A stretch of 35,338 nucleotides of DNA, from NCBI GenBank assembly GCA_945957555.1, contig CAMFLX010000036.1, positions 1 through 35,338 of the forward strand. Direction: 5' to 3'. The notes under the pieces are model-generated. The model was not told where the DNA came from. It was given only the letters and a program-made list of their open reading frames with translations, and ran no database searches. Source of the stretch: an uncultured Cytophagales bacterium. Its GTDB lineage: Bacteria; Bacteroidota; Bacteroidia; Cytophagales; UBA9547. Positions 811 to 18,443 of this stretch are shown here, one piece after another. The number at the start of each line of letters is the position of its first letter. Positions within the stretch are counted from its first letter, which is position 1. The position numbers and the translations under genes are program-made.

Positions 811-1605
811 TCACTTCAAAGGTTCATCCTCGGTTTTCCTACCAAACATTTTTGGTTTATAAGGATCTGTCCAGCGTTCCCACCAATCTCTTTTGGGATG
901 CCAAGGCTCCGGAGGCCGTATACTGTTATTCATCGTTAACTTAAAATCATCAACTTCTTCTGATTTTATTTTTTTCGAATGCAAGCTCTTTACCTTGTCC
1001 AACCAAACGCTATCACAACAAGCTTTTCGATTTTTATGCCCTTTACATAGGTAATCAAAAGGCTTGTAAAAGGTTTCTTCAAAAAAGGCTTCGCTAAAAC
1101 TGTATTTGCCCGTCACACTGTCCTTTACATAATTTGGCAAAACTCTCAAATGAGCAATAATGCTGAGTTCTTCAAAAGTAAGTGGCGCGTATATACTGTC
1201 CTGAAAAGCAACCCGATCAATTAAATTAGATGCCCCGACAAGAAAATACCAATGATCATCTATATACGCACCTCCCAATTCTGTAATAAAATCAACCTTA
1301 CCGTCCTTGTGAGCAGTATGTCTTTCACAAATAGCCGTATACATTCGAGTAGAATCTTTGTTAAAACAGATCACGCTGTCTACCCTCCAAGAAGTATTAT
1401 AAAAAACAGGCCTTACATTCACTAAACTATCACTAATCCAAGATCTTATACTATCACCAACTTGTTCATACAAATCCCTATAGGTATTAAAATTATTCTT
1501 TCCATAAAGTGACAGTTCGTCTCGATGAAGTTCATCATTGATTATTTTTTTACAACCAAATGTAACCAATAAGCCTAATAATAAAATCTTACCGTTGACC
1601 AACAT
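811..1605 (-). CDS. Lipoprotein of unknown function, candidate immunity partner of the preceding effector
   Basis: This 264-residue protein begins with a short positive and hydrophobic segment and a lipobox ending LVTFGC, so Cys18 should be lipidated and the protein held in the inner or outer membrane. The mature part is rich in aromatic and charged residues, with a proline/tryptophan-rich tail (EPWHPKRDWWERW). I recognise no domain. Its ATG lies inside the end of the 1441-residue gene (17-nt overlap, different frame), which implies translational coupling. A small gene overlapping the 3' end of a modular surface protein with a swappable C-terminal tip is the usual place for an immunity gene. 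Immunity proteins against lipase-type effectors are often lipoproteins. The immunity role is inference from position and localisation only. Confidence 0.6.
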   Translation of the reverse strand: MLVNGKILLLGLLVTFGCKKIINDELHRDELSLYGKNNFNTYRDLYEQVGDSIRSWISDSLVNVRPVFYNTSWRVDSVICFNKDSTRMYTAICERHTAHKDGKVDFITELGGAYIDDHWYFLVGASNLIDRVAFQDSIYAPLTFEELSIIAHLRVLPNYVKDSVTGKYSFSEAFFEETFYKPFDYLCKGHKNRKACCDSVWLDKVKSLHSKKIKSEEVDDFKLTMNNSIRPPEPWHPKRDWWERWTDPYKPKMFGRKTEDEPLK

Positions 1606-4600
1606 ATCCTTGAGCTCCCTTTTTTAAGTTATCAAATATCCACCCATAACTACTCGAATAGTGTGCATCAAGAAAATTCTTAAGCTCCTGTGCTCCTTGA
1701 AATGGAACTCTTCCATGATCCCAGTCCAAGCCCTTCGCTGCACATTGTGGTGCAATACCATCCTGTTCGTATTTTTTGTCTTTACCTGTCCTAGTATCTG
1801 AGCCATATTGCCAGACTTCTTCAAAACCCAGTTTTGTTACATCAACCCCAGAACAGGCATTTTCTGGAGCCAGAATATAAAACCGCCCAAAAGAAACATT
1901 AATATCCTTTTGTCCTTTTAGAAAATCAATCATTCCCATAGAATACGCAAAACCCATACTATGTGCGACAACGTCTATCGTAACACTTTTGTTATTACCT
2001 ATCGGGATCTCATAATTTCTCATTTTGGTGATGAGGTTCTGACCAGCCTTCCTCCCTTCTGCGAATCGTTTGTTATAGCCCGCTACATTTGGCTCTTCAT
2101 CTAAAACCACTTTACTTTCGTCTCCTACAGGACCTTCACAAGTGGCTAACGCAGTTTTAAGAGGAGCTGGCAAAGCATTATAAGTCGCCACTATTGCCCC
2201 ACATTTCAACTTACTTTTTAAAATTACATTTGCAGATAAACAAGATTTGTATTCTGAATAAAAACTTCTTGCTCCTTCCCCTACAGAATTATCTGGTTGC
2301 GCGCACGATGATGTGATCAATCCTGCAAAAAACTTGATTTTACTAGATGAGACTAAGCCGTCTTTAGCAACATGATTTGAAGTAGTCAAATCCATGTGAC
2401 CATCAGCATATACAGCATTGTAAGTATAAAATTTCTTAGTGAGTCTTTCTGAAAACTTATCATCAATTTCTCCCCAATAGTTCGTAAAGTCAATATTGTG
2501 ATAAACATCATTTGTAGTATTTTTATGCTCAGAAAGTAAACTGTTATATTCCTTTAGAGCTCTCCATATATCAGTAAAATCCATATTATTCCTATACCCA
2601 TTTACAAACAAAGTCAATCTTCCATATTCAACACTTAAAGTACTATTAATACTATTTAAATAATCATACAAGAATTCTTGTCCCTTTTTAGTCTTATCAT
2701 TTTCAGTTTGAAAGTTGGTATAAAGCGCATCATAGCCCGTAATTAGCAAAGTCGGATTTGAATCATAAGATCTACTTGTTCTGTTATAGTTATAAATACC
2801 CAATACATTACTAATGTTGTTTTCTGAAAGTTTTACAATTGTTTTTCTAATCGAGTTTTCAAAAATAGTAATAGATGCATTAAGGCCATTTACTCCCCCA
2901 ATAGTAATCTTATCAAAATTCACCCTATTAAATTCCATATTCTTGGCAATTACCGTACTATTTTCGATTTCATATTTTCTACATAAGGCAACCAAATCAA
3001 TAGTTATGTATTTATTGTTCAAATTGTTAAGATAATCAATATTATAATTTTTACTTCCTTTTATTTTATCCAGTATTTCCGCTACAAAGGCCGAGTTATC
3101 TGCAGATCTTCTACTCTCTGCTTCCTTTTGATTGATTCCAAACCTAATCTTCAATGGAGGGTTATGCGCGAGGAGCCACTGTTTGAAACTTAAGCTTGTG
3201 GAGGTATTGTAAGAGAGCAGGTTGTTGTAGTCGGTGCTGTGGCCTATATCGCTAAAGGGGTGCTCGAGCGCCAAGGGGTAGCCATGGGCGATCTCGTGGG
3301 CGATGGTGCGGTCATCGGCATTGCCAAAGAGAAAACCATAACTGCGGTTGACAGGGGTATGGCCTTTTACATTGCTCGAGCTGGTCTCTTTGCACATAAA
3401 CAGGTAGAGCGTATTGTCTTCCGCTTCACCATTTTTGGTAATGTATGCATTGATGAGATCTACCTGCGCCGAACTATAATCCATCAGTTTACCGTGATCC
3501 ACACTCAAGGAAGTCGTAGTGGTATCAAAGGACGCTTCGACGCTCAGCTCAAAATTAATATTGGCTTGTTGGTATACTTTGTTGAGGTAGCTCTGCAAAT
3601 TGTCTTTGTCAAAACCAGAGGGTTGGTGGCCCTTGAGAGGTATGAACTTGATTTTGACGCTAAACTGGTCAAATGAAAAAACATTGAGCTTGCCACACAG
3701 CACATCCGTACCGGTAGCATCGGTATAGTAAGGAAACAAAGCGTACTCATGCCCATGTAAGGCACCTACAAGATCTACCGTCCATTCCGTATTTGTACTA
3801 TTGGCAGAGGCATTGTACACCTTACCTTCATGGTCCTTGAACTTGATCTTGCTCAGATCTACCGAAGTGGGATTGACCTGCAACTTCGCTACCACCTTGT
3901 CTGCACCAGCCGCCGCTATGGACTTACAAGGCACATAGTAATAGGACTTACTGGGGCCTACGATATACTCATATTGGCTTTCGGAATTGGTCTTGAGTTC
4001 CTTGGTGTCGAAGGCATAAACTTGATCACTGGCTGGGACAAAAATAATGATGGGCTGGTTATCACCAAAAGACATATCAGTGTTCTCGCCCCCTTGGATC
4101 TTGGGCGCCGTACCTTTACTGGTAGCAGTAGCGCCTTTAGGTGGAACTTTGGTGATTTTATTGTCTTCCGAGACCAAGTATTGGTTGCCGTCTTTGTCTT
4201 TGATGCTGTAGTTTTTGCCAGCCGTAAGTTTTTTAATGACAGTACCAGAGGCATCTTTCACTTCAATCTGCTTGGTGGTTTCATTATAAGTCACCGAACC
4301 TATGACAGCGTCAACGGTGATATTATCCGCATTGGCATCGTCGTTTCCAGTAGCTCTTTTTTTAGTTTCCTGAGCGTCGTCCAAAAAGTCCTTCACACTT
4401 TCATCGCTGAGTACATAGGGTTCTTGTTGTAAGTCTACACGCCCCTCCAACATTTGGTAATCGGTATTGATCTTGACATCTTTGAAATTCACCACAATGT
4501 TGAGGTTGCCCAACATCTTCACCTGTGTGGTTCCCTCGCCTGCATATTTAGTGTTATCGTTATTATCAATCCGAGTGACTTTGATTTCAAAGTCATAGGC

Positions 4601-5914
4601 TTTGAACACATCTCCAAGCTTGAGTTCGGGGATGAGTTTGGTATTTTTCAGATCTACCTTAGGCAAAGGATCTCCACACTTGGCCTGATTGTTATTGCCT
4701 GTAGGTTGTGATCGTGTAGAAATGGCTGTGGAATAGTCGCTGGCACGTCCCCCATCGCAGAGGGTGGCTACCTGAAACAAGTACTCCGCATTGGGCACTA
4801 CAGGTTTGAGGATATACTTGTTCATATATACCGTCTTTTCTTCAAAGGCACCATTAGCCATTTGGTATTTCACCTGAAAGCCACCCGTACCAGCGGTACC
4901 TGTCCAAGTGAATAGAATCTGGTCTTGACTGGCAACGGCTTTTACATCCGTAGGCGTCATGCAGACCTCTCCATAGGTAAAGCTGCTTACTTGACTATAG
5001 CCGCCGTTCTGGTAAATATCACGACCATCGGCATCCAAGGCTTGCACACGCAGGGCATATCTTTTGCCTGGCACCAAGGCATAGTCTGAAGGACCATACA
5101 GATAGGTCGTAAGCGCGGTATAGTGCGACAATATGGGCGGGTAGGCACTGTTGACAATGATATTGGGATCTTGGGAGGGATCGAGCATCTCCCACATTTC
5201 CAACTTATAGCCTGTACTGTTGCTGGCGGAAAAACTGGCAGAATTTCTATTGGTCCACTGAATGCTGAAGTTTTGTAAGTCGTTGACACGCACCACGCCT
5301 TTGTTAAAAGGCAGATTGATAAATGGGGCTTGACCTTTAAAAATCCCCATGAGGGCCTGTGCGGTATTGCTGACAGCGAAGCCCGTGTTGCGACTGAATG
5401 CCTGTATCTTAAACTTATACAAGCCTTCAGGAAACAAGGAGCTGTTCGCGGCAAAATCGCTTTTGCTCATGCCCTCAAGTTCTAGATTTTTCAAGTCGAA
5501 ATACTCCAGAAGATCACTATTGCTCAAGGTGGTCATTACGCCTGGACTCAAGTCCGCATAAGTACTGGGCCTAAAGGCTGGACTGGTCTTCAGTTTGATG
5601 GCACTGCCCTCTAACTCTATGGCAAAGTACACCTCTAGCATTGGGGTGTTCATATCCCTCAGCAAAAGATTCAGCATGAGGTTACTTCCCGTACCGTAGT
5701 CGTTCAAACTATTGGCATAGGGGGGCGTTACCACAACTTGTGCATTGACGGGCAGGGTTTGGGCATTTGAGTATACAGTCGACAGTAAACAGTATACTGT
5801 TACAAGTATAGAGTTTAGAGTCCAGAGTTTAGAGAAGACAGTTCTCTGTAAATAGTTAACCGCAACCTGTAATTGTCTCAATCTTATAATTGCAAGGTAT
5901 TGTATGTATTTCAT
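1589..5914 (-). CDS. Large modular surface protein: TANFOR-like/FN3 N-terminus, zincin motif, lipase-like C-terminal tip
   Basis: This 1441-residue exported protein has several parts in order. Residues 1 to about 52 form a long signal region ending STVYSNAQ. Residues about 55-310 are beta-rich (PPYANSLNDY, LYGPSDYALVPGKRYALRVQ) and resemble, from memory, the TANFOR domain of big Bacteroidota surface proteins. An FN3 domain lies at about 319-403, followed by a long beta-rich linker. A zincin motif HEIAHGYPLALEH sits near residues 872-884, with two zinc-ligand histidines and the catalytic Glu. The C-terminal 500 or so residues carry VAHSMGFAYSMG, a lipase nucleophile elbow, with Ser near residue 1317, and a later WDHGR that may supply the His. 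No T9SS sorting domain is seen. The 5' two thirds are GC-rich (63% at 3241-3300) and the tip is AT-rich (32% at 2881-2940), as if the tip was exchanged. A pre-toxin peptidase plus toxin tip is a plausible reading, not proven. Confidence 0.75.
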   Translation of the reverse strand: MKYIQYLAIIRLRQLQVAVNYLQRTVFSKLWTLNSILVTVYCLLSTVYSNAQTLPVNAQVVVTPPYANSLNDYGTGSNLMLNLLLRDMNTPMLEVYFAIELEGSAIKLKTSPAFRPSTYADLSPGVMTTLSNSDLLEYFDLKNLELEGMSKSDFAANSSLFPEGLYKFKIQAFSRNTGFAVSNTAQALMGIFKGQAPFINLPFNKGVVRVNDLQNFSIQWTNRNSASFSASNSTGYKLEMWEMLDPSQDPNIIVNSAYPPILSHYTALTTYLYGPSDYALVPGKRYALRVQALDADGRDIYQNGGYSQVSSFTYGEVCMTPTDVKAVASQDQILFTWTGTAGTGGFQVKYQMANGAFEEKTVYMNKYILKPVVPNAEYLFQVATLCDGGRASDYSTAISTRSQPTGNNNQAKCGDPLPKVDLKNTKLIPELKLGDVFKAYDFEIKVTRIDNNDNTKYAGEGTTQVKMLGNLNIVVNFKDVKINTDYQMLEGRVDLQQEPYVLSDESVKDFLDDAQETKKRATGNDDANADNITVDAVIGSVTYNETTKQIEVKDASGTVIKKLTAGKNYSIKDKDGNQYLVSEDNKITKVPPKGATATSKGTAPKIQGGENTDMSFGDNQPIIIFVPASDQVYAFDTKELKTNSESQYEYIVGPSKSYYYVPCKSIAAAGADKVVAKLQVNPTSVDLSKIKFKDHEGKVYNASANSTNTEWTVDLVGALHGHEYALFPYYTDATGTDVLCGKLNVFSFDQFSVKIKFIPLKGHQPSGFDKDNLQSYLNKVYQQANINFELSVEASFDTTTTSLSVDHGKLMDYSSAQVDLINAYITKNGEAEDNTLYLFMCKETSSSNVKGHTPVNRSYGFLFGNADDRTIAHEIAHGYPLALEHPFSDIGHSTDYNNLLSYNTSTSLSFKQWLLAHNPPLKIRFGINQKEAESRRSADNSAFVAEILDKIKGSKNYNIDYLNNLNNKYITIDLVALCRKYEIENSTVIAKNMEFNRVNFDKITIGGVNGLNASITIFENSIRKTIVKLSENNISNVLGIYNYNRTSRSYDSNPTLLITGYDALYTNFQTENDKTKKGQEFLYDYLNSINSTLSVEYGRLTLFVNGYRNNMDFTDIWRALKEYNSLLSEHKNTTNDVYHNIDFTNYWGEIDDKFSERLTKKFYTYNAVYADGHMDLTTSNHVAKDGLVSSSKIKFFAGLITSSCAQPDNSVGEGARSFYSEYKSCLSANVILKSKLKCGAIVATYNALPAPLKTALATCEGPVGDESKVVLDEEPNVAGYNKRFAEGRKAGQNLITKMRNYEIPIGNNKSVTIDVVAHSMGFAYSMGMIDFLKGQKDINVSFGRFYILAPENACSGVDVTKLGFEEVWQYGSDTRTGKDKKYEQDGIAPQCAAKGLDWDHGRVPFQGAQELKNFLDAHYSSSYGWIFDNLKKGAQGYVGQR
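5774..5857. repeat. Heptamer satellite array inside the signal-peptide coding region
   Basis: About twelve degenerate 7-bp units run in register on the plus strand (TACAGTC, GACAGTA, AACAGTA, TACTGTT, TAGAGTT, TAGAGTC, CAGAGTT, GACAGTT and others). The array lies inside the 1441-residue gene and encodes roughly residues 20-47, including SILVTVYCLLSTVYS, the hydrophobic core of its signal peptide. The same motif recurs at 7962-7989 and 13450-13498 in the signal-peptide regions of two neighbours. Confidence 0.7.
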
Positions 5915-6064: not shown

Positions 6065-6097
6065 AGACCTATGAGGTTTTAAAAACCTCATAGGTCT
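6065..6097. repeat. 33-bp perfect palindrome, copy 1
   Basis: The arm AGACCTATGAGGTTTT, one central A, and the exact reverse complement of the arm form a 16-bp hairpin with almost no loop. Copies lie at 8168-8200 and 13660-13692, always between genes of this module. The rest of the 5915-6208 gap also holds a GTTTTTGGAGACAGAAATGT element (from 6012) related to GTTTGTGGAGACACATACGT in the 13.7-kb gap. There is no gene in it. Confidence 0.75.
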
Positions 6098-6208
6098 TAT
6101 TGCTGGCCACAGCGTTTCTCTCTGTGTGTCACAGACCACTGTGTAGTCAAATTCCTTCATCTTCAAATTGACACATTTCCAAATTGCCGTCATCTTCAAA
6201 TTACAAAA

Positions 6209-8089
6209 TTACTTAGGTCTTGCTTCTTGACTCTTGTGTCTTGCCTCTAAAGTAGTTTTATCAAACACCTTAAAAGTATAAGAATATCCTGCTGTAAAGG
6301 TATATTCCTGAAAGGCTACTCTTTTAGCATTTTTCACATCGGAGTTGAGATAGACGCAGTTCAATGAGAAATTGTGACTTTTGAGCAAGGTATAGGCCAG
6401 ACCTGCCCTTGTGGTTAGGATTTTAGAATTGCCCGTACTTTGTGAAACTACATAGGTTACGGAAGCATTACTTCTGAGTTTTTTCTTAAAAAAAGCTTTG
6501 TTGAGCCCTAGAGAAGGCCCTAACAAAGTAGTGGAATTTTTGTCAAAATCGTTACGAGAGCCATTCGCAGAAATATTGATGCCTAGACTCTGAGGCACGA
6601 ATTGCACCCCATATCCCATCGTTAAATTATAAAAATGACTGGCTGGGGCACCTTGCCCCTCCCCTTGAATATCGGCAGAATTCTGGTAAGTCAGATTCCC
6701 ATTCAGATTCTGTTTCACTTTTTCCTTTTTTGATAGGATGTAATTATATCCCACATTGGCATTTTGCGAAATCTGTCTGTATTGGAGCGTATCTATATAG
6801 GTGTTGGGAGACGCCGTTAAAGTCTGAGAAAGTGCCCTGGTATTGGAGTAGGTTCTAAAATTGGAATAGCTCCCATTGAAGTTCAGTCTTTGACTGGCCA
6901 TAAAGCCCAAATTGAGACTCCCCACCAGCCTACGCATATTGGTCGCTTTTTTATGATCCAGGTCGTCGCGCTGGATCCCGAAGTTGGTACTTACGTTTAA
7001 TTTCTGTTTGAAAAGCTGACTCGAAAAATCTATGGTCGTGTTTTCCAAATCGTTGTTAAAAAAATAGCTGCCCAGTGTTTTATAGTTGGGATCAATGCGC
7101 TCATAGTTTACCCCCAATGTAAAGAGCGAACCTGTATAAGCCATACCTACTTTATAGGCTTTGTACAAACCACTCCCTTGTTTGGCACTCATCCCCATAT
7201 ATTTGAAAGTTTGTGCATTTCCATTGTTGGCATCTTGTTCTCCAAGACTGTTACTATTGAGGGCTGAAAGTGCAATCTCACCATTCAAGGCAAGGCTCTT
7301 ATAAATTGGCTTGCTGAGATTGATACTCACAACTGTGTTTTCTTGAGGTTTGAGACTGGAACTGGAGGGTATATTCTTAAGGCTGTTGGCATCGTCCCAA
7401 GCCCTGAAACCGATGATGCCGAACTTAAAGCTTTTGGGAGTAAAGGCCAATTTAAAGCCCCCGCCCCAACGCAAATAGGAAGGGCCAAGGCCTGGAGTGA
7501 TCACCTTACTGCTCGCAGTGGCAGTCGTATCTGCGAGAAAAGCGCTATCGGGCGCTATAGCCCTTTGAAATCTCCCAAAAGAAGCAGCAATGGTTACTGG
7601 GATCTTCTTAGGTGCATAGTCAAAACCACCCCCTTCATACAAGTGACCATTCAATGTATATGGAGAATAGCTGCTACTGATCCGCCCAATATGCAGGGTC
7701 AATCCTTTGTATTTAGGATGATAGGCGAATGTATTGAAAGGATTGCTGATGTTTTTCGAAAACTGGGGATTGGTGTACATGAAACTCAGCGTACTGGTAA
7801 TCCCCAAAAAATCGAGATTCAAATTCCCTTGATATACATAGGTATAGGGCGCACGACGGGCTGCAATTCCTTCATTAAAATACAGTACCTGACTGGTGCC
7901 TACATTACCCCCGATCCGCAACAGATCCTTTTGCTCGATACGATCCAAATCTTGGGCGTAAACAGTTATCAGTAGACAGTTTACGGTGAATAAGAATATT
8001 TTTATGTTGAAAGCGGAAGGCTTAAGGCCTAAGGAGAAACGCTGAAAGCATAAGGCTCTCGGCTCAGTACGAAAGATAAAATATTGCAT
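6209..8089 (-). CDS. Outer-membrane beta-barrel protein of unknown function
   Basis: This 626-residue protein has a signal peptide core (IKIFLFTVNCLLITVYAQ) preceded by an unusually long n-region of about 28 residues. The mature protein is built of alternating amphipathic strands with Gly, Asn, Ser and aromatic residues throughout (for example GGGFDYAPKKIPVTIAASFG and QEYTFTAGYSYTFKVF), typical of a large outer-membrane barrel of more than 20 strands. No TonB box, plug or carboxypeptidase-like domain is visible, so it is not a classical TonB receptor. The last clear strand ends KVF. The final dozen residues (EARHKSQEARPK) are an appendix encoded by heptamer satellite DNA, as is most of the n-region. 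The only ATG for this frame before the signal core is at 8089. It lies between the SprB/T9SS protein and the effector-like protein, so a pore or anchor role is possible but inferred. Confidence 0.7.
   Translation of the reverse strand: MQYFIFRTEPRALCFQRFSLGLKPSAFNIKIFLFTVNCLLITVYAQDLDRIEQKDLLRIGGNVGTSQVLYFNEGIAARRAPYTYVYQGNLNLDFLGITSTLSFMYTNPQFSKNISNPFNTFAYHPKYKGLTLHIGRISSSYSPYTLNGHLYEGGGFDYAPKKIPVTIAASFGRFQRAIAPDSAFLADTTATASSKVITPGLGPSYLRWGGGFKLAFTPKSFKFGIIGFRAWDDANSLKNIPSSSSLKPQENTVVSINLSKPIYKSLALNGEIALSALNSNSLGEQDANNGNAQTFKYMGMSAKQGSGLYKAYKVGMAYTGSLFTLGVNYERIDPNYKTLGSYFFNNDLENTTIDFSSQLFKQKLNVSTNFGIQRDDLDHKKATNMRRLVGSLNLGFMASQRLNFNGSYSNFRTYSNTRALSQTLTASPNTYIDTLQYRQISQNANVGYNYILSKKEKVKQNLNGNLTYQNSADIQGEGQGAPASHFYNLTMGYGVQFVPQSLGINISANGSRNDFDKNSTTLLGPSLGLNKAFFKKKLRSNASVTYVVSQSTGNSKILTTRAGLAYTLLKSHNFSLNCVYLNSDVKNAKRVAFQEYTFTAGYSYTFKVFDKTTLEARHKSQEARPK
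6213..6247. repeat. Heptamer satellite at the 3' end of the beta-barrel gene
   Basis: Five 7-bp units run in register: TTAGGTC, TTGCTTC, TTGACTC, TTGTGTC, TTGCCTC. They match the TTRTGTC array at 13802-13906. They encode the last dozen residues of the 626-residue protein and end next to its TAA stop at 6209-6211. Confidence 0.65.
7962..8071. repeat. Two heptamer satellites in the 5' end of the beta-barrel gene
   Basis: Units at 7962-7989 are ACAGTTA, TCAGTAG, ACAGTTT, ACGGTGA. They encode part of the hydrophobic signal core. Nine units at 8009-8071 (GAAAGCG, GAAGGCT, TAAGGCC, TAAGGAG, AAACGCT, GAAAGCA, TAAGGCT, CTCGGCT, CAGTACG) encode the long n-region. The second type recurs outside the gene at 8120-8154. 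Confidence 0.65.
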
Positions 8090-8154: not shown

Positions 8155-8167
8155 TTTTCATTTCTAT

Positions 8168-8200
8168 AGACCTATAAGGTTTTAAAAACCTTATAGGTCT
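8168..8200. repeat. 33-bp perfect palindrome, copy 2, with a compensated base change
   Basis: The arm here is AGACCTATAAGGTTTT. Relative to copies 1 and 3, a G in the left arm is A and the paired C in the right arm is T, so the hairpin stays perfect. It is followed by TATTTCTGGCCA, matching TATTGCTGGCCA after copy 1. Confidence 0.75.
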
Positions 8201-8220
8201 TATTTCTGGCCATGGATTTC

Positions 8221-8250: not shown

Positions 8251-8292
8251 TTTACTCTTTACTCTTTACTCTTTACTCTTTACTCTTTACTC
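8251..8292. repeat. Perfect TTTACTC heptamer array ending in a stop codon
   Basis: Six exact tandem copies of TTTACTC. The last C of the array is the first base of the CTA that, on the minus strand, is the TAG stop of the 1028-residue gene, so the array begins exactly where the coding sequence ends. Confidence 0.9.
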
Positions 8293-11200
8293 TAAAAATC
8301 TCCTGCCACAAACAGCCTCAGCGACACCGTCTCCTCGCCTACCTTGAGGTAGAGCACGTACAGTCCCTCTGCCAGCGACTGGTCGAACTCGTGCTCCTGT
8401 TCCTCTGCTGCGGGCAGCTGTACGGTCTGGATCAATGCACCAGACGATAGACTATGGAGGCTGACCTCCATACTTCTCGCCTCGTCCAGCTCCACCCTCA
8501 GCGTAAACTGACCACTGGTCGGGTTGGGGAACAGCTCCACCTTCCTGAACAGCTCGGCGTCTATGCCCAAGGCACTGTTGAGCGAGTCCCTTTGCGATTT
8601 TGGATAAATATGGATGGTCTTCTTGAGCTCGGCACGACACTCCTGATCCTGTGCCATCAACCAGATCTCATAGTCCCCCTTCTGCCCAAAGATGTATTCC
8701 TGAACAGCAGCGCCAGAAGTACTCAGCACCCTTACGGAACCAGAAGGAGCCTTCCAGTCCAGCGTTAAGGTGCTCAAGTCTTTATTGTTTGCTATGATCG
8801 TTACTATATCATCGACCACTGCATGGGTAGCCATCAAGAAATCTGGCTCAAAACTCCTTGTGGACTGGCTGATCTTTATGGTGTCCCTGCCAGTGCAACC
8901 GAAGGTGTTGCTCACCTTCACGTAGTAGGTGCCTGCCTCTGTTACGGTCACCTTTTGTGTGTGGGCCTGCAGCCCGTTGTCGGAGCCCCAGTCGTAGCTG
9001 TTGCCAGGATTACCTGCATCCAGCTCCAAACGCTGACCCTTGCAGAGCACGGGGTAGCCTTCCAACTGTACGGGCAGGGCTGCGGGTGCGTTCAGTGTCA
9101 CAGTGTCTCTCTTCCCACAGTTGAGCGCATCTAGCACCTGCACGATATAGATGCCGCCCCCCAAGCTTTTGGGACTACTGACATTGGCGAGTGCTGGTCT
9201 ATCTGTCCAATTATAGCGGTAGGGTCCGATACCTCCTGAGGTGGAGAGCTTAATCTCGCCATCGGTACTCTCGCTACAGGAGGGCTGGCTCTTAGAGATG
9301 CTGTTGTATATGTTCGACTGCTGACCTATACTAAAGTCCAGTGTGTTTTGGCACAGTGAATCGTCCATAGCATATACCTTGTAGTTACCTGATCCGAGCC
9401 CCGTGAAGTCTTTGCTGTAGGCTTGGGCATTGGCCACTGGTTTGTAGGGAGCCTTGGGGTCTAGCCAGACCGTCTTTCCCCCTGCCCCGCCTGATACCTG
9501 TACCTGTATGCTGCCATCTTTATCGCCAAAGCAGGTGGTGGGTTTATTGTTGCTTACTGATAGGCTGATCACCGATGGCGCGCCTATATTCACAGTGAGC
9601 TGTTTCATACAACCCATATTGTTCTTGGCGTATAGGGTCTGGCTCCCCGAGGATAAGCCCTTGAGACTTGGATTGCTTAAATAGTTGACATTGTCAGCCG
9701 AATACGTATAAGTGTAACTCAGATCCGTGCTACTCGCCAGCGTGAGGGCTTCGCCCTTGCTCTCGCCCGCACATCGGTTGTCCTTCTGGGACTGGAGCAC
9801 GAAGCTGAAGTCCTTGGGGCTGTCCACCGTTATGCTCGGCACCGTGGCGGTACAGCCCCTGCTGTCGCTGAGGCCAAGCGAAACCGTGGTGCCCGCCTTT
9901 GCGGTGTAGGTGTTGCCTGCCTGTGGCTGGCCGTTGAAGCTGTATGTGTAGCTGCCCGTGCCTCCCGTGGCGGCAAGGCTCAGCTGTCCGTCGTTGCCGA
10001 AGCATTTGGGTTGTACCACACTGCTCGTACCCTGTAGCTGTGGAGGCTCGGTGACCGTGAAGCTGATCGGGCTCTCGTGCACACAGCCCTTGGCGTCCTT
10101 GAGTACCAGCGTATGGGAACCCTTGGAGATATTATTGAGCGTTGTAAGGACTCCCACATCTGAGACAAACTTGCTGCTGTTGTCGAGCACAAGGGTGTCT
10201 TTGGGCAGGGTGCCGCCCTGCACCATGATCCCGTAGCTGGCCTTCTCCCCGAAGCAGTTGATGTCTTTGAGAGTGTTTTGGCTGTAGGAAAGCTTGGTCG
10301 GCGGGGAGATGGAGACAGTGAGGGTTTGAGGGCAGGAACGCGACAGGTCAGGAAAAATCTCACTAAATTTCAAGCTATGAGTTCCTGGCTCTAAAGCTTG
10401 AATTTCATCACTTTGAAGATCAGGCCTCGAGGTACCGTCCAATTCCCATGCAAATCCTCTTGCACCTGTTTGCAATATAAATGAACCTTGGGCTAGATCA
10501 GATTTTCCACCTATTTGAGTAATATCGCATAATGGTTGGCTTAAAATCAGCTCTGTACCTAAGCGAAGATTGGGGGTAAAAAAAACATATAAACCCACTG
10601 AAAGCCAATTAAATTTATCTATTCTTGCCTCATATTTATGCAAATTACAAAATCCAGATATAGTAAGGTCTTGCATAACAGTCAAATTAGCCCCAGTACC
10701 AACCTTTACACCATCACGGTACCAACTAATATCTGAGTCAATAAAATTATTCTTCATAAAATCAGGAGCAGCCAAAGTAATCTGTTTGGATGTTATTTTC
10801 ATAGGATCCATCCCAGATGGTGAAATTAACTTTACACGAGTGTTAGGTTCACTGACAACAGCAAAAGTACCTCTTATTAAAACACTTAAAACTCTAGTTC
10901 CGGGATCACCCGGTTGATCATAAGTTTTATTAAAATTTATAGAAATTGGATTTTCATCAATAAAGGTTGCTAAGGGACTATTAAAACCTTGTTGCATTGT
11001 AGAAGAACCAGTATAATTTGTCTTTACTATTACATCAACTTCTCTAGTAGCCGATTTATTAGGGTTAGTATTAGTAGCTCTTATTCCTAAATTTTGTTTC
11101 GCTTTTGAATAAAAATATCCTCCTTGTATTTTAGGCCAATAGGTATTTGAACCATTTATATCCATACTTAAACTATCTGGATCTTGTATATTTTCCCTAC

Positions 11201-11378
11201 TTTGTGTTGAAGAATTCACAATAACCACACTCACAAGGTCTTTAGTAATTGTGGATATATTTGAAGTTGAACTTATGGACATTTCATCCATAGCATAATA
11301 AACAGTATAAGGTGCTTGACCAAACGTCATTATAGCAAACATACAACTACAAAACAGAAAAAGCCTGAACATTTTCAT
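8292..11378 (-). CDS. SprB-repeat surface protein with T9SS C-terminal sorting domain
   Basis: This 1028-residue protein has an N-terminal signal peptide (MKMFRLFLFCSCMFAIMTFG). The N-terminal 350 or so residues are a beta-rich region without a family I recognise. Five SprB-type repeats follow, each opening with a Cys-containing segment and a GG turn, near residues 373, 456, 533, 614 and 696 (for example CFGDKDGSIQVQVSGG and CSESTDGEIKLSTSGG). A further beta-domain at about 770-860 contains YDWGSDNG. A type A T9SS sorting domain starts near residue 948 (ELFPNPTSGQFTLRVEL) and ends in EGLYVLYLKVG plus a last strand. It should be secreted through the Por machinery and anchored at the surface or released, probably as an adhesin. 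The gene is a composition mosaic: 65% GC at 9721-9780 but 28% at 10981-11040, with the break near 10375. The gap to the FN3 gene is 35 bp. Confidence 0.85.
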   Translation of the reverse strand: MKMFRLFLFCSCMFAIMTFGQAPYTVYYAMDEMSISSTSNISTITKDLVSVVIVNSSTQSRENIQDPDSLSMDINGSNTYWPKIQGGYFYSKAKQNLGIRATNTNPNKSATREVDVIVKTNYTGSSTMQQGFNSPLATFIDENPISINFNKTYDQPGDPGTRVLSVLIRGTFAVVSEPNTRVKLISPSGMDPMKITSKQITLAAPDFMKNNFIDSDISWYRDGVKVGTGANLTVMQDLTISGFCNLHKYEARIDKFNWLSVGLYVFFTPNLRLGTELILSQPLCDITQIGGKSDLAQGSFILQTGARGFAWELDGTSRPDLQSDEIQALEPGTHSLKFSEIFPDLSRSCPQTLTVSISPPTKLSYSQNTLKDINCFGEKASYGIMVQGGTLPKDTLVLDNSSKFVSDVGVLTTLNNISKGSHTLVLKDAKGCVHESPISFTVTEPPQLQGTSSVVQPKCFGNDGQLSLAATGGTGSYTYSFNGQPQAGNTYTAKAGTTVSLGLSDSRGCTATVPSITVDSPKDFSFVLQSQKDNRCAGESKGEALTLASSTDLSYTYTYSADNVNYLSNPSLKGLSSGSQTLYAKNNMGCMKQLTVNIGAPSVISLSVSNNKPTTCFGDKDGSIQVQVSGGAGGKTVWLDPKAPYKPVANAQAYSKDFTGLGSGNYKVYAMDDSLCQNTLDFSIGQQSNIYNSISKSQPSCSESTDGEIKLSTSGGIGPYRYNWTDRPALANVSSPKSLGGGIYIVQVLDALNCGKRDTVTLNAPAALPVQLEGYPVLCKGQRLELDAGNPGNSYDWGSDNGLQAHTQKVTVTEAGTYYVKVSNTFGCTGRDTIKISQSTRSFEPDFLMATHAVVDDIVTIIANNKDLSTLTLDWKAPSGSVRVLSTSGAAVQEYIFGQKGDYEIWLMAQDQECRAELKKTIHIYPKSQRDSLNSALGIDAELFRKVELFPNPTSGQFTLRVELDEARSMEVSLHSLSSGALIQTVQLPAAEEQEHEFDQSLAEGLYVLYLKVGEETVSLRLFVAGDF

Positions 11379-11413: not shown

Positions 11414-13510
11414 TCAATTTACCTCCACTTTCTCACTCAATTCCCCCATCTGACCATTCTGTAAAACAGGTCTAATATGGTAATAATACATTTTGGAGAC
11501 TTCGATTTCCTTATCTTCAAAATGCATCAAATCACCAGACACAGATTCGTACTGAGAGAGTCTTTCGCCTAGAGAACCTCTGTATATGATCCAATAATCG
11601 ATGTCTGGAGCACTGCTCTTCCAATCCAAGATGATTTTCTTTCTATCCTCGGTTCTTTGTATGGTTACTTTAGCTGCAGCAATAGCGGGTTCCTTACTAT
11701 GTTTCCGCAACTGTACACTTTGTGTCTTTTCAGAAATTAAGGAGTCATCGTCTATGGCAACCACTTCATAACTATAGGTTTTATTGGCTTGCATATTTTT
11801 GTCTACATACAAGGTCGTATCTCCTTTGTGTTTTATATTCGCCAATAACATTTGTATGTTTTCAGGATACTCTATCCTGCTCAGTTTGTACTTGACTACA
11901 TCTTTACTAGGGCTATTCGCCCAAACCAAAAGCACTCCTGCAGTATCAGCTCGCATGGTTTTAAAGGCAATAGGTGCTGGCGGCAATACATCGGGCCTCT
12001 TTACTGCTACTACACTTGGTTTGGATTCATTGAAGCGAATATCCAGTGCAATCACCTTATAGTATAATGAGTCTGTCAGTGCATTCATGGCCACCTTTTC
12101 TTCAAAGCTGGTCTTTTCGATATGACTATCGGTGATTCTTGCATACTCTTGTTTTCTACTGTTGGACTTGTATACATAATAACCCAAAAGGTCCTTTTCT
12201 GAATTGGCTTTCCAAGTCAGGGACAAGACACCTTCTTTTGTTAATACGGCCTTAAATCCTGTTGGTGCCTTAGGAGGCTCATTGTCTTCCCTCTGGGCAA
12301 ATACAGGAAAGGATGCTTTCTCTGCACCCTGTTGATCCACAGCTACCACTTTATAATAGGCTTCCTGCAAGGGATTGAGGTCTTCAAATTGGAAAACGGT
12401 TTTGGCTAACGGCAATTTGGAAACTACTGTATAGCCAGTTTCATAATTCACACTTCTATATACCTTAAATGCCGTTACCTGTGATAAACTAAATTTTTCA
12501 AACTCCCAAGTGATGAGTACTTTTTTGCCACCCAATACATTCGCCTTCACTTGTTTCGGTGCAGTATGAATCAAAGGTTTGCTCATGCCTTGAGTGGTTT
12601 CACCGTATTTACCATATTCTCCAAAGGCAGATAAGCCTCTGATCCTATAATAGATCGTTATATTGGGCAAGGTCGAATCCATGTAAAATGCGTATTTGTT
12701 CTTTACGTTTTCATTAATAGGCACAAAAGGTTCCTCGTTCCTCTTTTGATAGGTTTTTCCACCATCCACAGAACGCTCAATATCATAGGCTATAAAATAT
12801 TTCTGTAGTTGCTTATAGTTCCAGCTCAGGGCTGCCGTACTATCGAAAAAGGCAACCGAAAACTCCAAAGGAGCCGGGAGTGGTTCGTATTCATCTACAG
12901 AAGTATATACAAAACCGGTATCAATGGCCTCCGATGTGGCCAAATTAGCGACATAGACACGGTACAGATATTGGGTGCCCTTTTTGGCGGATTTGTCTAC
13001 CCAGCGTAAACCAGAGGCTTGAGCCACCCGAGCATCTAGATCTGCGGACGTCAAGGCAAAAGAATACCGCATCTCTGTTTCCAGATCTTTTTCGTAGGCT
13101 TTGCGAATCATTGACTTGCCTTTTTGTTTCTTGTCATTCACCTCAAAGGTCTCACCATATAGCGCCTGAGCAGTAATGGCGCCATAAGTACTGCTTTTTG
13201 CTAAAGGCTCCCAAGCAGCCAAAGGCTGGGGCTTCAATCCTTCTAAAGTTAACAATTCCACTTTAAGCACTTTCAAAAGTTTCTTGTTTTCGGCTATAGT
13301 GACACGTTCTATTTTATAACCTAATTGATTGGCTTGTTTCCAAACCTCCTTCTTGTTGGGTGCCCAACGGAGTACTATTGAATCAGGCATGGGCCTGGCT
13401 GCTAGTTTGATAGATTTCTGTGCCCATCCTGAATATGACAAACACAATAGTAGTAGACAGTTTAGAGTAGACAGTTTACCGTTTACAGTTAACAGTTTGA
13501 TTTTATACAT
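11414..13510 (-). CDS. Exported protein with tandem fibronectin type III domains
   Basis: From the ATG at 13510 this is a 698-residue protein with a normal signal peptide: MYKIKL, then a hydrophobic core ending LLLLCLSYSGWAQ. The frame stays open to ATGs at 13570 and 13621, but those add 20-37 residues of non-signal text encoded partly by satellite DNA, so 13510 is preferred. Five FN3-like units are readable, each about 95 residues and often opening PPxAP. They start with PLEFSVAFFDSTAALSW, KQVKANVLGGKKVLITW, GFKAVLTKEGVLSLTW, IAFKTMRADTAGVLLVW and VTIQRTEDRKKIILDW. A looser one sits at the N-terminus. There is no T9SS sorting domain and no lipobox. It is probably a periplasmic or surface scaffold. 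It lies between the 1502-residue protein and the SprB/T9SS protein, likely in one transcript with the latter. Confidence 0.75.
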   Translation of the reverse strand: MYKIKLLTVNGKLSTLNCLLLLCLSYSGWAQKSIKLAARPMPDSIVLRWAPNKKEVWKQANQLGYKIERVTIAENKKLLKVLKVELLTLEGLKPQPLAAWEPLAKSSTYGAITAQALYGETFEVNDKKQKGKSMIRKAYEKDLETEMRYSFALTSADLDARVAQASGLRWVDKSAKKGTQYLYRVYVANLATSEAIDTGFVYTSVDEYEPLPAPLEFSVAFFDSTAALSWNYKQLQKYFIAYDIERSVDGGKTYQKRNEEPFVPINENVKNKYAFYMDSTLPNITIYYRIRGLSAFGEYGKYGETTQGMSKPLIHTAPKQVKANVLGGKKVLITWEFEKFSLSQVTAFKVYRSVNYETGYTVVSKLPLAKTVFQFEDLNPLQEAYYKVVAVDQQGAEKASFPVFAQREDNEPPKAPTGFKAVLTKEGVLSLTWKANSEKDLLGYYVYKSNSRKQEYARITDSHIEKTSFEEKVAMNALTDSLYYKVIALDIRFNESKPSVVAVKRPDVLPPAPIAFKTMRADTAGVLLVWANSPSKDVVKYKLSRIEYPENIQMLLANIKHKGDTTLYVDKNMQANKTYSYEVVAIDDDSLISEKTQSVQLRKHSKEPAIAAAKVTIQRTEDRKKIILDWKSSAPDIDYWIIYRGSLGERLSQYESVSGDLMHFEDKEIEVSKMYYYHIRPVLQNGQMGELSEKVEVN
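13450..13498. repeat. Heptamer satellite inside the FN3 protein's signal peptide
   Basis: Seven units run in register: GTAGTAG, ACAGTTT, AGAGTAG, ACAGTTT, ACCGTTT, ACAGTTA, ACAGTTT. On the minus strand they encode LLTVNGKLSTLNCLLL, the signal-peptide core. A decayed extension (CAGTACA, ATTTAGC, GTAGACA, GTTGACC) continues at about 13534-13561. Confidence 0.7.
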
Positions 13511-13659
13511 TTGTGGTGACACAAATGAGGCCACAGTACAATTTAGCGTAGACAGTTGACCGAATTTCATAAATACTAGTTGGTATGATCTTGTTTGTAT
13601 CGTGTGTCTAATATTTTGCATTATTGTGTTTTACTTATTTTATTAAATACTTCCTTCCA

Positions 13660-13934: not shown

Positions 13935-16900
13935 TCACTTAAAGACAATGTTATAAGTATAACATTTCGTCAATTGCTTGCTACCGGGCATCCTGTAGTA
14001 CATATCTACAGGATAGGTGGCATTACGCACTGTAGAAAACATAGGAAAACCTTTGGTCAAAATATTTTCATAGTCTTGGGTAGCAGCGCTCGATTTAGCT
14101 CCCATTTGTGCAAAGTGTTTTGCGGCCTTGTCCCTAAGTTGCTGAAAATCGTCCAACATGGTGAGGTGAAAATTCCCGATGATCTTCATCCCAACCATAA
14201 CCGATGACACGGTTCCTGAAGAAAACTCCGAAGTACTGAGCTGATCGACAGGTAGGGTCTGTGTAAAGCTGACATTCCGACCTGGGATATAGCCATATTC
14301 TGCTGTATCACGGTCTACCGTAAAGAGGCCCGCTCTTGGGTAGTTTTTATAGACCAAAGGTTTCATATAATTTGCAAACCAGTCCATGCTTGTCACATTA
14401 AAGTTATTAACCCAAAGAGGCGTTTCTTCGTCATAACCTTCTAATTCTGCTTTATCAAAAGCCTCCTGTGGTTGGTTAAACTCTGTAGTCCAGTTTGCCG
14501 AAGCCAAGCCTACATTCATATAATAACTTTTCTTGATCTGAACGGCAGCCATTTTAGCCGCTAGGTTATCATAGGCACTGGTTCTGAATCCAAAATTCAA
14601 AAGCACTTTGTCTTCTATATTCAAGAGCTCGCCTTCGGCTGATTTCGTTTGGAGTGATGCTGTATTTTGAGAATCTGTTCCTGAATTCAAAACAGCTTTC
14701 TCATTGGTTTTTATGTTTTTATCAATCCTTAAATTGTCGTCTATTGGTGTATTCACAAAAGCAAACTCATAGACTTGATTCTTTACCAGACCTTGTGGCA
14801 TGGCAAAATCTATCCTCTTGGCTCCTACCTGATAGGCCGTTGCTGTGTATAGGGTGTCACCATCATGTTTGATCAAACGTACTTGTTGCTTGTATTTTGC
14901 GGCGTCGAAGAGGTAGGGTTGTCCAAACTTAAGCTGCACGTAGCCTTTATTAGACTGCGCCACAAATAGATTTTTTTGTTTGATGACAGGATAGGAATAT
15001 TTCACGTTTTCCAAAGGGATATAATCAGGCGCCTCACCCGTCGTAAACTCTATTTCTTTAGCTTCCTCTTCTATTTTGCCTTTGTCGTTTTTATAGGGAG
15101 CCCATGCGCCGTTTTGCTTAGCTTCAAAAATGACTTTCAAACTGGCTTTCAGTTTTTTGTTAGGAGGTAAGATATCGTGGGCTGCAAATGCAACCGTGGT
15201 ATGGTCTTTATTCCACTCGTTTTCTCCAAGTAGCACTGTGCTTCCGTCCATAATGCTGAACTCCTTCAATACAGCCCTAAAAACTTTGGTTCTGCTCGCA
15301 TCGGCTTCATCTTCTATGGTAAACTCCTTATCCAGTGGTATATTAAATACCCCTTGCGGTTTAGTGAACACACTTACATCTACCTTTCCTGTGGCAGGGC
15401 TCATATCCGCAATCACGTCTATACCTGCCAATTCATCTCCATTCTCCCTGATCTGGCATTTTTCGCCCAGCTCTACTTCTAGTCTACAGCTCCCTGTGAC
15501 CAGGCCATTTAATATACTGTAATTCCCTCCTACGATCCCCTTCATCCAAAAAGGATTGGGCAACTGTGCCTGCAAAATAGCGGCGGCGCTCACTTTCAAA
15601 ATTTCATAGCGGCCTCTTACAAAAGCCAGTTTCACATTGATCCCTACACTTCCTTGAAAATAGGCATAAGCTTGGCCGTTGGCATACCAGCCATTCACGC
15701 CCAACGAGCCCGTACGACCTTCACAGTATGCATCGGTACCGTAGTTTTTGACCATGACGTCAAAGCCCAAACCTGCAGTAATGCGGTAATAAAAAATCAA
15801 GAATTGCTTATCTCCCGTTTCTATGGCTAGTGCGGCTCCAAAGGCGATGCCTTTGCCGTCGCCCAGCGCATTGAGGTCTCTCATGTAATCCAAACTTTCT
15901 GGGCTGATCCCTAAGATCTGAGCTACCTGGTCTGGTGGTGCGGGACTCCCTTCTATAGAAGTCCCCATCATAAAATACGAAGTCAATTCTGCAAGTCCTA
16001 AGGCTGTGATCTTAATGGGGTTGCTCGGCGTTCCTACATTGATAAACCACTTATCTGGACCGATGTATAAATTACCCTCACCTGCCAAGTTATCGTCATA
16101 AGCACCTTTGATCATACCATTCCCAACCGAGATGTAGGGTTTAAAATTAGCAGTCAGCTCCTTTTGTTCGAAATTAAACTCTACCGTAAGCGACAATTTG
16201 ATTTCATCACGTGGTTTGTCGCCATCACCCCCAAAAGTCTTGGCCATGCCACTTTTATCCATACCATTGAAATGCTTCATGATCGGAATGTCATTTTCTA
16301 TCCCACTTGCCGACAGGTTGGCTGATTTTTCAAAATCATTGATCTTACCCATCAGCTTCGCAGGACCATCCATTACTTTCATATTGCCCATACAAGTGCC
16401 CTCACCCAAGAAGAAAATCTTCCTCAAGCCTCCTTGAGCATTGAATGCGATCTCAAACATGAGCTTCCCGGAAAATGCCTTTTCATCTGGTATCGCCAAA
16501 AACACCCCTGCCTTAAAGCCCAAACCTGCCGTAGAGTCTGGTTCATAGAACTGTCCTGAAATACTTTTGGCCAGATCGCTGCTGGAGCTTGTCACCTTCT
16601 TCATTCTCTGGTAAGCGCCTCCTGCAAATCCAGTAAGATTTACGCCAGTGAATATGGGCAGTTTAATGCCCTCAAGAGAAGCGTCTACATTCCAATAGCG
16701 GGTCTGTCTAATTTTACCAAAAATAGCCCCTACCTTCATCTCTATTTTGTTCTTGAGCTCCAATGTCATAGAGATTTCACCCTTAAAGCCAGTACCAAAG
16801 GTGGTGTCTTCTCTGAAAAAATCTATGGAACCTTCCAAGGTAAACTTGGTAATTTCCACCTTTTCGAGCCCAAACTTGGTCAAAGTAAGATTGGCAAACT

Positions 16901-18443
16901 CATATTTATCTTTACCGTCTTTGTCTTGATTAATATTGGCTGTCATTTCCAAGCCACCCGTCGCCCCAAATTTTTCATTGAGATTTACACGCAGTTCCAC
17001 GCCAAAAGTCACTTTCTTTGCTGTGGCGGAAAGTGCCAATCGAGTAATGACGATTTGAAACTTGGCCAATTCGGGATTCCTGGTGGTATCATTAGTCGTG
17101 TATTCTATACCTTTAAGCTTGAGTTTTGGAGCATAATTGGCTATTTCCAACTCTTCAAACTTAATGTTCCTGATTCGGAATTTAGTGGCAGACTTCTCAT
17201 CAGATGTCAAAGGCGCATTGATACACAGCGTTCCTGAGAGGTTCGCCCTGATTTTAACCGTATCACCCATCACCTCTATTTTGAGTTTCGAATTAGAGCT
17301 CAACTTTACCGTATCGGCTTTGAGCATAGGAAAGCTCATTTTTGACAAGTATTTCACCTCGAAACTATAGGTATTGTTCATCCCTATGGTACAAGCATAG
17401 CCTACTGTATCTTTATCCTTCGCTATGGGAAATCGGATCTTGCCCTTGAAGGAACCTTTGATGATGTTGTTTTTATACAACTCTACGCCCAGCCCGTCCA
17501 ATGAAAATGACCAATTGCCTAAGTTCCCCTTATCTAAACTCAAAAGATTGTTGGCTTCCACGGCGCCTGTAATTCCCTTATCATCAATCACAAAGTTATT
17601 GGCAGCCAATTCAAGGCGTTGACCTTTTTTGTCATCGTTTTTGATAAACTTGGGCAATTTTACCTTAAAGCTAGAGATGTAAATACCTTGCCACAGTTTT
17701 GAGAGCGAATCTACCGCAAAAATAGGGTCGTACTTACTGTCCAATTTCATCGCAGGAGGATTGGCATAGTCGCTGTAATCCAAGAAAGCCTTAGAAACCG
17801 TAAAGGAAAAATCTTTCAAGCCATTAATCTGAAAAGTTGGCAGGTTGATCTCCAATAGAAAATCACTGAAATCGCTAAGCTCTATTGCAAAACTGGTTTT
17901 CACTCTATTCTGGTCATCGATGCTGCCATCAGCCTTTTCTTTGAGTACCAACTTTTTGGAAAGTTCTAGGTCCATACTCAAACCCATTTTTTCAAACCCT
18001 TTACAGTTGATTTGCGCAAAGGTTGCGTCTTTTTTGAAAGTCAGTAAGGCTTGATCGCCTTTTTTAATAGTTACATCATCTGCCAGTTTCAACTTTACAG
18101 TGCCCACTATGCCAGCTTCATTAGAGAAACTGATATCCTCCGCATAAAACATCAGCCTTTCGTTACTGCTCGGTATCTTTACCGAAAGCATGGCTTTGAA
18201 ATAAGCCTTATCCTTTTCTACTCTTGAGTCCCAAATGACAATCGCATATTTGGTATTGTTGACCAATTTGATGATATCAGAGGATACGGTATCGCTGAGT
18301 GACGCTGCGACATCTGCCTTTTCATACAGCTCATCATACAAACTCCTAAGTTCTTGAGAAGAATGAGCTGAAAGTTCTTTAGCAATAACAGGTTGGAATA
18401 GCCCTAAAAGGACGCAAAGAAAGACGTAAAAGATTCTAGGCAT
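13935..18443 (-). CDS. Very large exported beta-rich protein of unknown function
   Basis: This 1502-residue protein has a clean signal peptide (MPRIFYVFLCVLLGLFQPVIA, residues 1-21, cut before KE). The mature part is almost all short alternating beta-strand text with few Cys and no long helices. The first 900 or so residues contain many lines of the kind NLTGFAGGAYQRMKK, suggesting a repetitive beta-solenoid or lamellar fold. Around residues 1050-1140 is an Ig-like stretch (HDILPPNKKLKASLKV, then FTTGEAPDYIPLENVKYSYP). No enzyme motif, lipobox, TM helix or T9SS sorting domain was seen; the C-terminus ends YNIVFK. It is the first gene of the six-gene module and has the only good promoter found there, so it may lead a long transcript. 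A role as structural or envelope partner of the module is inference. Confidence 0.7.
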   Translation of the reverse strand: MPRIFYVFLCVLLGLFQPVIAKELSAHSSQELRSLYDELYEKADVAASLSDTVSSDIIKLVNNTKYAIVIWDSRVEKDKAYFKAMLSVKIPSSNERLMFYAEDISFSNEAGIVGTVKLKLADDVTIKKGDQALLTFKKDATFAQINCKGFEKMGLSMDLELSKKLVLKEKADGSIDDQNRVKTSFAIELSDFSDFLLEINLPTFQINGLKDFSFTVSKAFLDYSDYANPPAMKLDSKYDPIFAVDSLSKLWQGIYISSFKVKLPKFIKNDDKKGQRLELAANNFVIDDKGITGAVEANNLLSLDKGNLGNWSFSLDGLGVELYKNNIIKGSFKGKIRFPIAKDKDTVGYACTIGMNNTYSFEVKYLSKMSFPMLKADTVKLSSNSKLKIEVMGDTVKIRANLSGTLCINAPLTSDEKSATKFRIRNIKFEELEIANYAPKLKLKGIEYTTNDTTRNPELAKFQIVITRLALSATAKKVTFGVELRVNLNEKFGATGGLEMTANINQDKDGKDKYEFANLTLTKFGLEKVEITKFTLEGSIDFFREDTTFGTGFKGEISMTLELKNKIEMKVGAIFGKIRQTRYWNVDASLEGIKLPIFTGVNLTGFAGGAYQRMKKVTSSSSDLAKSISGQFYEPDSTAGLGFKAGVFLAIPDEKAFSGKLMFEIAFNAQGGLRKIFFLGEGTCMGNMKVMDGPAKLMGKINDFEKSANLSASGIENDIPIMKHFNGMDKSGMAKTFGGDGDKPRDEIKLSLTVEFNFEQKELTANFKPYISVGNGMIKGAYDDNLAGEGNLYIGPDKWFINVGTPSNPIKITALGLAELTSYFMMGTSIEGSPAPPDQVAQILGISPESLDYMRDLNALGDGKGIAFGAALAIETGDKQFLIFYYRITAGLGFDVMVKNYGTDAYCEGRTGSLGVNGWYANGQAYAYFQGSVGINVKLAFVRGRYEILKVSAAAILQAQLPNPFWMKGIVGGNYSILNGLVTGSCRLEVELGEKCQIRENGDELAGIDVIADMSPATGKVDVSVFTKPQGVFNIPLDKEFTIEDEADASRTKVFRAVLKEFSIMDGSTVLLGENEWNKDHTTVAFAAHDILPPNKKLKASLKVIFEAKQNGAWAPYKNDKGKIEEEAKEIEFTTGEAPDYIPLENVKYSYPVIKQKNLFVAQSNKGYVQLKFGQPYLFDAAKYKQQVRLIKHDGDTLYTATAYQVGAKRIDFAMPQGLVKNQVYEFAFVNTPIDDNLRIDKNIKTNEKAVLNSGTDSQNTASLQTKSAEGELLNIEDKVLLNFGFRTSAYDNLAAKMAAVQIKKSYYMNVGLASANWTTEFNQPQEAFDKAELEGYDEETPLWVNNFNVTSMDWFANYMKPLVYKNYPRAGLFTVDRDTAEYGYIPGRNVSFTQTLPVDQLSTSEFSSGTVSSVMVGMKIIGNFHLTMLDDFQQLRDKAAKHFAQMGAKSSAATQDYENILTKGFPMFSTVRNATYPVDMYYRMPGSKQLTKCYTYNIVFK

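What the first reader, a model, noticed from the sequence alone, without database searches (positions are those of the whole stretch)
8292..11378. Composition mosaic inside the SprB/T9SS gene
The C-terminal two thirds (SprB repeats and sorting domain) are about 65% GC in 9721-9780, while the N-terminal third is about 28% in 10981-11040. The change is near 10375, at the start of the SprB repeats. The effector-like gene has a similar GC-rich block. GC-rich reusable modules may have been joined to local AT-rich sequence, or the N-terminal head was replaced.
Basis: seen in the sequence. Interest (0 to 1): 0.5.

Follow-up and report, generated by a model that had tools for sequence, protein, structure and literature searches.

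The report
Two-composition joined surface-protein gene
A bacterial surface-protein gene beside a suspected toxin gene looks like two pieces of very different DNA style joined in frame at a domain border, which suggests that its outer head and its anchoring tail have had different histories.

Summary
It is a synonymous step: GC3 is 0.207 over codons 1-343 and 0.685 after, with a break at codon 343 (window about 10349; lnLR 109 against at most 6.2 in 200 shuffles). It is the strongest of 252 long ORFs sampled from this genome; the best in 200 ORFs of 30 unselected loci is 11.9. Both halves are atypical, so the head is not "local" sequence.

Two own-genome paralogues are homologous over the conserved parts and align across the break without that step. 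In 24 comparison genes the tail-head GC3 difference is at most 0.19. Other genomes match only from about residue 282 or later, so the break sits near where distant similarity begins.

The gene lies in a cluster like the published TANFOR polymorphic-toxin neighbourhoods. The toxin-like gene there also changes composition where its homology stops, as Rhs core/tip genes do.

Best explanation: in-frame exchange at the head/stalk border between copies of different base composition, with the AT-rich head as the variable end. No donor was found, and protein distances alone do not show a swap.

The parts
8292..11378 (-). SprB-repeat surface protein with T9SS sorting domain, 1028 aa
   Evidence: ORF; SprB repeat Pfam 78.8 bits (cut-off 28), TIGR04183 32.5 bits (cut-off 23)
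10350..11378 (-). AT-rich head, codons 1-343, GC3 0.207; first about 20 residues look like a Sec signal peptide (seen in sequence, not run through a predictor)
   Evidence: no Pfam, PHROG or PDB relative
8292..10349 (-). GC-rich tail: SprB repeats plus C-terminal sorting domain, GC3 0.685; the GC-rich block ends at the gene's stop
10347..10379 (-). Composition break (support interval within codons 334-344), between the last head residues and the SCPQT...PP stretch shared with the paralogues
1589..5914 (-). Toxin-like gene of the TANFOR type: core GC3 0.53 (about 3143-5914) and AT-rich variable tip GC3 0.27 (about 1589-3142); break at codon 924, homology to paralogues ends at 928-933
811..1605 (-). 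264-aa lipoprotein-like gene overlapping the toxin-like gene's end; candidate immunity gene by position only
   Evidence: no family match
6209..8089 (-). 626-aa protein recurring in the cluster in other genomes; that it may be an outer-membrane barrel is my reading, untested
11414..13621 (-). 735-aa fibronectin type III protein of the cluster, GC3 0.40
13935..18443 (-). 1502-aa conserved cluster protein without Pfam family, GC3 0.46

Best explanation
The gene makes a surface protein: a Sec signal, a variable N-terminal head, a stalk of SprB repeats, and a C-terminal domain that sends it through the type IX secretion system. It belongs to a TANFOR-like polymorphic-toxin cluster, present in several copies in this genome. 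The gene was joined in frame at the head/stalk border by recombination between family copies of different base composition. The most likely direction is that an AT-rich head of the same head family replaced the former head on a GC-rich stalk and sorting tail. The head is the fast-changing, outward end (probably a binding or partner-recognition domain); the tail is the conserved delivery end. Shown: the step, its position, its strength against controls, colinear paralogues without it, and distant similarity beginning near the same place. Inferred: recombination as the cause, the direction of the swap, and the head's role.
For: Step at codon 343, lnLR 109, strongest of 252 ORFs. The AT-rich block starts within about 35 codons of the gene start (break support 736-770, fn735 ends at 735) and the GC-rich block ends at its stop (support 675-686, tail ends at 685), so the blocks match gene and module borders. 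In 23 alignment rows from other genomes the best match starts at query residue 282 or later, most at 309-464. A 3-sequence head profile finds only the three own-genome genes among the ORFs of 69 loci, 2 of 390 order genomes (own, plus one weak hit at 2.3e-4) and 1 of 395 class genomes (own), while tail matches are common. The tail's codon use is nearest to the toxin-core segment of another cluster (distance 0.209); the head's is nearest to toxin tips (0.337), though it lies far from everything. Four of the next five strongest intragenic breaks in the sample are toxin-like genes of such clusters.
Against: No donor, orphan head or second copy of the head was found. Protein distances do not by themselves show exchange: window-C61 and window-C2 identities are 32.0% and 29.8% in residues 166-343 and 34.8% and 32.3% in the tail; C61-C2 is 34.4% and 44.3%. 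The nearest-codon-use result mostly tracks GC3. Head-versus-tail steps are not general in the family: mean +0.038, 17 of 24 positive, p 0.064.
Confidence: 0.6

Rival explanations
1. The whole gene arrived ready-made as a mosaic from another lineage, so the join did not happen in this genome.
For: The 1502-aa gene of the cluster occurs in 45 of 291 order genomes; a related SprB gene, a 614-aa gene, an HNH-endonuclease-named gene and a SMI1/KNR4 gene sit in a row on an Emticicia plasmid; both halves are atypical for this genome.
Against: Tail and 1502-aa protein are far closer to own-genome paralogues than to anything else found (489 against 148 bits; 1616 against 861 bits), so any source must be a near, unsampled relative.
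Confidence: 0.17
2. No exchange: codon use drifted apart in place because head and tail are under different selection or conversion regimes.
For: The break falls at a domain border; the tail is slightly GC-richer than the head in 17 of 24 comparison genes, and three genes of one other genus show a milder step (0.09-0.19).
Against: The same head/tail architecture has no comparable step elsewhere (maximum 0.19; own-genome paralogues 0.11 and 0.02). The sorting end (codons 851-1028) is about as GC-rich as the repeats (0.66 and 0.69). No direct repeat of 40 nt or more was reported inside the gene.
Confidence: 0.13
3. Assembly chimaera of two strains' genes.
For: The genome is a 413-contig draft.
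Against: Frame is kept and the alignment with both paralogues runs through the junction apart from short gaps; no second copy of the head was found in the own genome; contamination is given as 0.43%.
Confidence: 0.05
4. A head unrelated to the family's heads was fused to the stalk.
For: No relative of the head outside the three own-genome genes at useful significance.
Against: Head aligns with both paralogue heads (BLAST E 2e-21 and 1e-10 among heads).
Confidence: 0.03

Closest known systems
TANFOR polymorphic-toxin neighbourhoods with SprB/T9SS neighbours (Jana, Salomon, Bosis 2020, PMC7073777)
   Same: Toxin-like gene with variable C-terminal part near a SprB-repeat/T9SS-tail gene and fn3 genes; own genome encodes SprA.
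   Different: The paper's two sections that I read do not discuss base composition or the head of the SprB neighbour; the window toxin-like gene itself does not hit the TANFOR model.
Rhs genes with C-terminal tip displacement (BMC Genomics 2009, PMC2935791)
   Same: G+C-rich conserved core joined in frame to an A+T-rich variable end (67.7% against 46.4% in the example given in the passage read).
   Different: Here the AT-rich, variable part is N-terminal, and the conserved part is the C-terminal T9SS delivery end; no orphan heads were found.
SprB-type adhesins of gliding Bacteroidota (recalled)
   Same: SprB repeats and T9SS export signal.
   Different: Shorter (recalled), lies in a toxin-like cluster, sorting signal matches the type A model.

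Membership tests
SprB-repeat T9SS cargo | SprB repeats | tested here: met
   PF13573 78.8 bits, cut-off 28, 3 stretches
SprB-repeat T9SS cargo | C-terminal T9SS sorting domain | tested here: met
   TIGR04183 32.5 bits, cut-off 23; Pfam PF18962 26.4, just under its 27
SprB-repeat T9SS cargo | Signal peptide | not tested
   N-terminus looks like one in the sequence; no predictor run
TANFOR polymorphic-toxin neighbourhood | TANFOR domain on the toxin | tested here: inconclusive
   Window protein: no NCBIfam match up to E 10; homologue L121:1498-6435 hits TIGR02542 at 2.2e-10, 40.6 bits, below cut-off 67; that homologue matches the window protein at 6.6e-91
TANFOR polymorphic-toxin neighbourhood | Variable C-terminal part on a conserved core | tested here: met
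   Homology to C2 and C61 copies ends at 928/933; GC3 break at 924
TANFOR polymorphic-toxin neighbourhood | SprB/T9SS and fn3 neighbours | tested here: met
TANFOR polymorphic-toxin neighbourhood | Downstream immunity gene | tested here: inconclusive
   264-aa gene overlaps the toxin-like gene's end; no family match
TANFOR polymorphic-toxin neighbourhood | T9SS in the genome | tested here: met
   SprA 2245 bits, cut-off 200; other components not searched
Rhs-like displacement | Conserved GC-rich part joined in frame to AT-rich variable end | tested here: met
   for one gene; mirrored orientation
Rhs-like displacement | Orphan copies of the variable end | tested here: not met
   Head profile finds only the three full genes in the own draft genome

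The most novel reading that the evidence does not exclude
Mirror-image polymorphism: because T9SS cargo needs its sorting signal at the C-terminus, the SprB partner of TANFOR-type toxins varies by N-terminal displacement. AT-rich heads are exchanged onto a conserved stalk and tail, as the AT-rich C-terminal tips are on Rhs and TANFOR-type cores, so one cluster diversifies its toxin end and its surface-head end separately.
Probability: 0.28. Interest if true: 0.6.

Novelty: new variant of a known kind. Interest (0 to 1): 0.42.

Why it matters
In what I read, the SprB neighbour of TANFOR-type toxins is described only as a neighbour. A head that changes separately from its stalk would suggest that it sets what the producing cell binds or which partner it carries, and would give a simple mark (a GC3 step at the head border) for finding recent exchanges in other T9SS cargo.

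Tried and rejected
Amino-acid composition as cause: rejected (expected GC3 0.40 and 0.39). Head as local sequence: rejected. Step as a fixed feature of the architecture: rejected. Unrelated head: rejected for the own genome. Donor style by codon use: led nowhere definite, since nearest neighbours mostly follow GC3.

Head relatives: profile-profile comparison of the window head group with 15 other head groups (a 16th group was empty, and its printed lines only repeat the previous result) gave no hit above 12.3% probability. One hit was colinear (group A, 178-305 on 184-307, E 0.01, 4%); the 12.3% one covers only the signal-peptide stretch. Heads of other genomes are weakly linked with each other (up to 98%), so fast divergence of one head family is possible. 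PDB, PHROG and Pfam searches of the head were empty. AlphaFold gave mean pLDDT 42.6, so no fold search was made; the model puts the break between strands 332-341 and 348-357, but at pLDDT under 50.

Genome-contig scan with the protein gave one relative (25% identity, residues 249-989). Plasmid search found SprB relatives in 10 records, none covering 80% of the gene. Literature: five searches; 'TANFOR' is in 3 held papers, one of them a chance word; none of the listings announces a base-composition step in such a SprB gene, but only the listings and the passages and sections named here were seen.

Comparison set: 25 genes (window plus 24) of those with tail matches. Left out: genes cut at the 5' end; duplicates and fragments (L133, L145, L123); SprB-repeat proteins without this tail or outside such clusters (L037, L039, L040, L042, L157:11343, L109:1428, L111:2746); and genes whose first repeat was before residue 150 or after 700, except four added by hand (L150-L153). 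Several of the 24 come from one genome or genus. In one search the 23 rows include fragments of the same genes.

Full report
What was checked. The gene at 8292-11378 (minus strand, 1028 aa) has SprB repeats and a T9SS sorting tail. On third codon positions the gene has one sharp break at codon 343 (window about 10349): 0.207 before, 0.685 after, lnLR 109.4; 200 shuffles reach at most 6.2. Amino-acid make-up predicts about 0.40 for both parts. For example AAC is 2 of 21 asparagine codons in the head and 22 of 34 in the tail.

How unusual. In about 800 kb of this draft genome (window, 10 pieces chosen for SprB relatives, 30 unselected), 252 ORFs of at least 300 codons were scanned; this gene has the largest step (0.513 against 0.353 for the next) and the largest lnLR (109.4 against 60.5). 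In the 30 unselected loci the best of 200 ORFs is 11.9. Of the next five genes in the ranking, four are toxin-like genes of similar clusters (L035, window 1589-5914, L034, L038) and one is a long SprB-repeat gene (L041). Both halves are extreme: of 450 other sampled ORFs, 2 have GC3 at or below 0.207 and none at or above 0.685. Blocks of the same length inside other genes do reach these values now and then: 18 of 1621 blocks of 343 codons are at or below 0.207 and 4 of 705 blocks of 685 codons are at or above 0.685, so each half alone is rare but not unique.

Where the blocks end. Fitted with their neighbours, the AT-rich block begins at or just after the start of the gene (support 736-770; the upstream gene ends at 735), perhaps behind the signal peptide (codons 1-21 have GC3 0.38), and the GC-rich block ends at the stop (support 675-686; the tail has 685 codons). 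The neighbouring 735-aa, 1502-aa and 626-aa genes have GC3 0.40, 0.46 and 0.45.

Homologues. The own genome has two paralogues (contigs C61 and C2) at 36% and 33% identity. They align through the break; identity to the window protein is 21% and 15% in residues 1-165, 32% and 30% in 166-343, and 35% and 32% in the tail. Neither has the step: tail minus head is +0.11 and +0.02, against +0.47 here. In other genomes of the order the 1502-aa neighbour is found in 45 of 291 (own included), often with the fn3, SprB, 626-aa and toxin-like genes beside it. There the SprB gene matches ours only from query residue 282 or later (23 rows). Their heads are mostly about 330-390 aa in the shorter genes and longer in others. 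They are weakly linked among themselves but not convincingly to ours. The head profile finds only the own genome and one weak hit in 390 order genomes, and only the own genome in 395 class genomes. Of 24 comparison genes, 17 have a GC-richer tail, mean +0.038, maximum +0.19 (p 0.064). So the head changes much faster than the tail, and the large step is peculiar to this copy among those examined.

The cluster. The toxin-like gene at 1589-5914 matches paralogues only to residue 928 (C2) and 933 (C61) and its GC3 falls from 0.53 to 0.27 at codon 924. Of 13 toxin-like genes fitted by name, 12 fall towards the C-terminus and one (L130) rises; some are incomplete, and a fourteenth name (L034) was missing there but falls in the background list of the same call. 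A homologue of it hits the TANFOR model below cut-off. The published TANFOR neighbourhoods are enriched in SprB, Por_Secre_tail and fn3 domains (PMC7073777, sections read). An Emticicia plasmid carries a SprB relative, a 614-aa gene, an HNH-endonuclease-named protein of 2719 aa and a SMI1/KNR4 gene in that order, the same order as here if the window's 264-aa gene is the immunity gene. Rhs genes are the known case of a G+C-rich core joined to A+T-rich tips (PMC2935791, passages read).

Reading. A sharp synonymous step, near the place where distant homology begins, in a gene whose relatives lack it, is best explained by recombination between copies of different base composition, in frame at the head/stalk border. 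Which half moved is not shown. I favour the head, because it is the variable part and because AT-rich variable ends are the rule in the toxin-like gene beside it. The inconvenient result is that protein distances do not single out the head: all three heads are about equally apart, and the only asymmetry is that C61 and C2 are closer in the tail (44.3%). A swap would therefore have brought in a head of the same family already as diverged as the old one. Function is inferred from the parts: Sec export, T9SS export, stalk, outward head; the genome has SprA.

Limits. The donor is unknown, the genome is a draft, the comparison genes are not independent, codon-use nearest-neighbour results mostly reflect GC3 itself, and the structure model is too poor to use.

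Noticed in passing
6064-6109, 8167-8212, 13659-13704: Near-perfect palindrome (hairpin) in three gaps between the cluster's genes; 8 places in the whole draft genome, three of them here, three on contig C101, one beside another toxin-like gene on C11.
   Followed up: partly
18983-19445: Array of a 40-nt unit upstream of the 1502-aa gene, beside a 117-nt and a 40-nt two-copy repeat at 18578-18933.
   Followed up: no
13786-13920: Array of a 14-nt unit in the gap between the 735-aa and 1502-aa genes.
   Followed up: no
L037:7775-19162: SprB-repeat protein of 3795 aa with a GC3 fall from 0.40 to 0.20 at codon 3524, as if it too had an AT-rich C-terminal end.
   Followed up: no
L033:12899-14783: Two lipoprotein-like genes with the same beginning and similar ends in tandem between the fn3 and SprB genes of cluster C61.
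   Followed up: no
L174:3529-12048: A further toxin-like gene with its 626-aa-type neighbour on contig C11, beside one copy of the palindrome.
   Followed up: no
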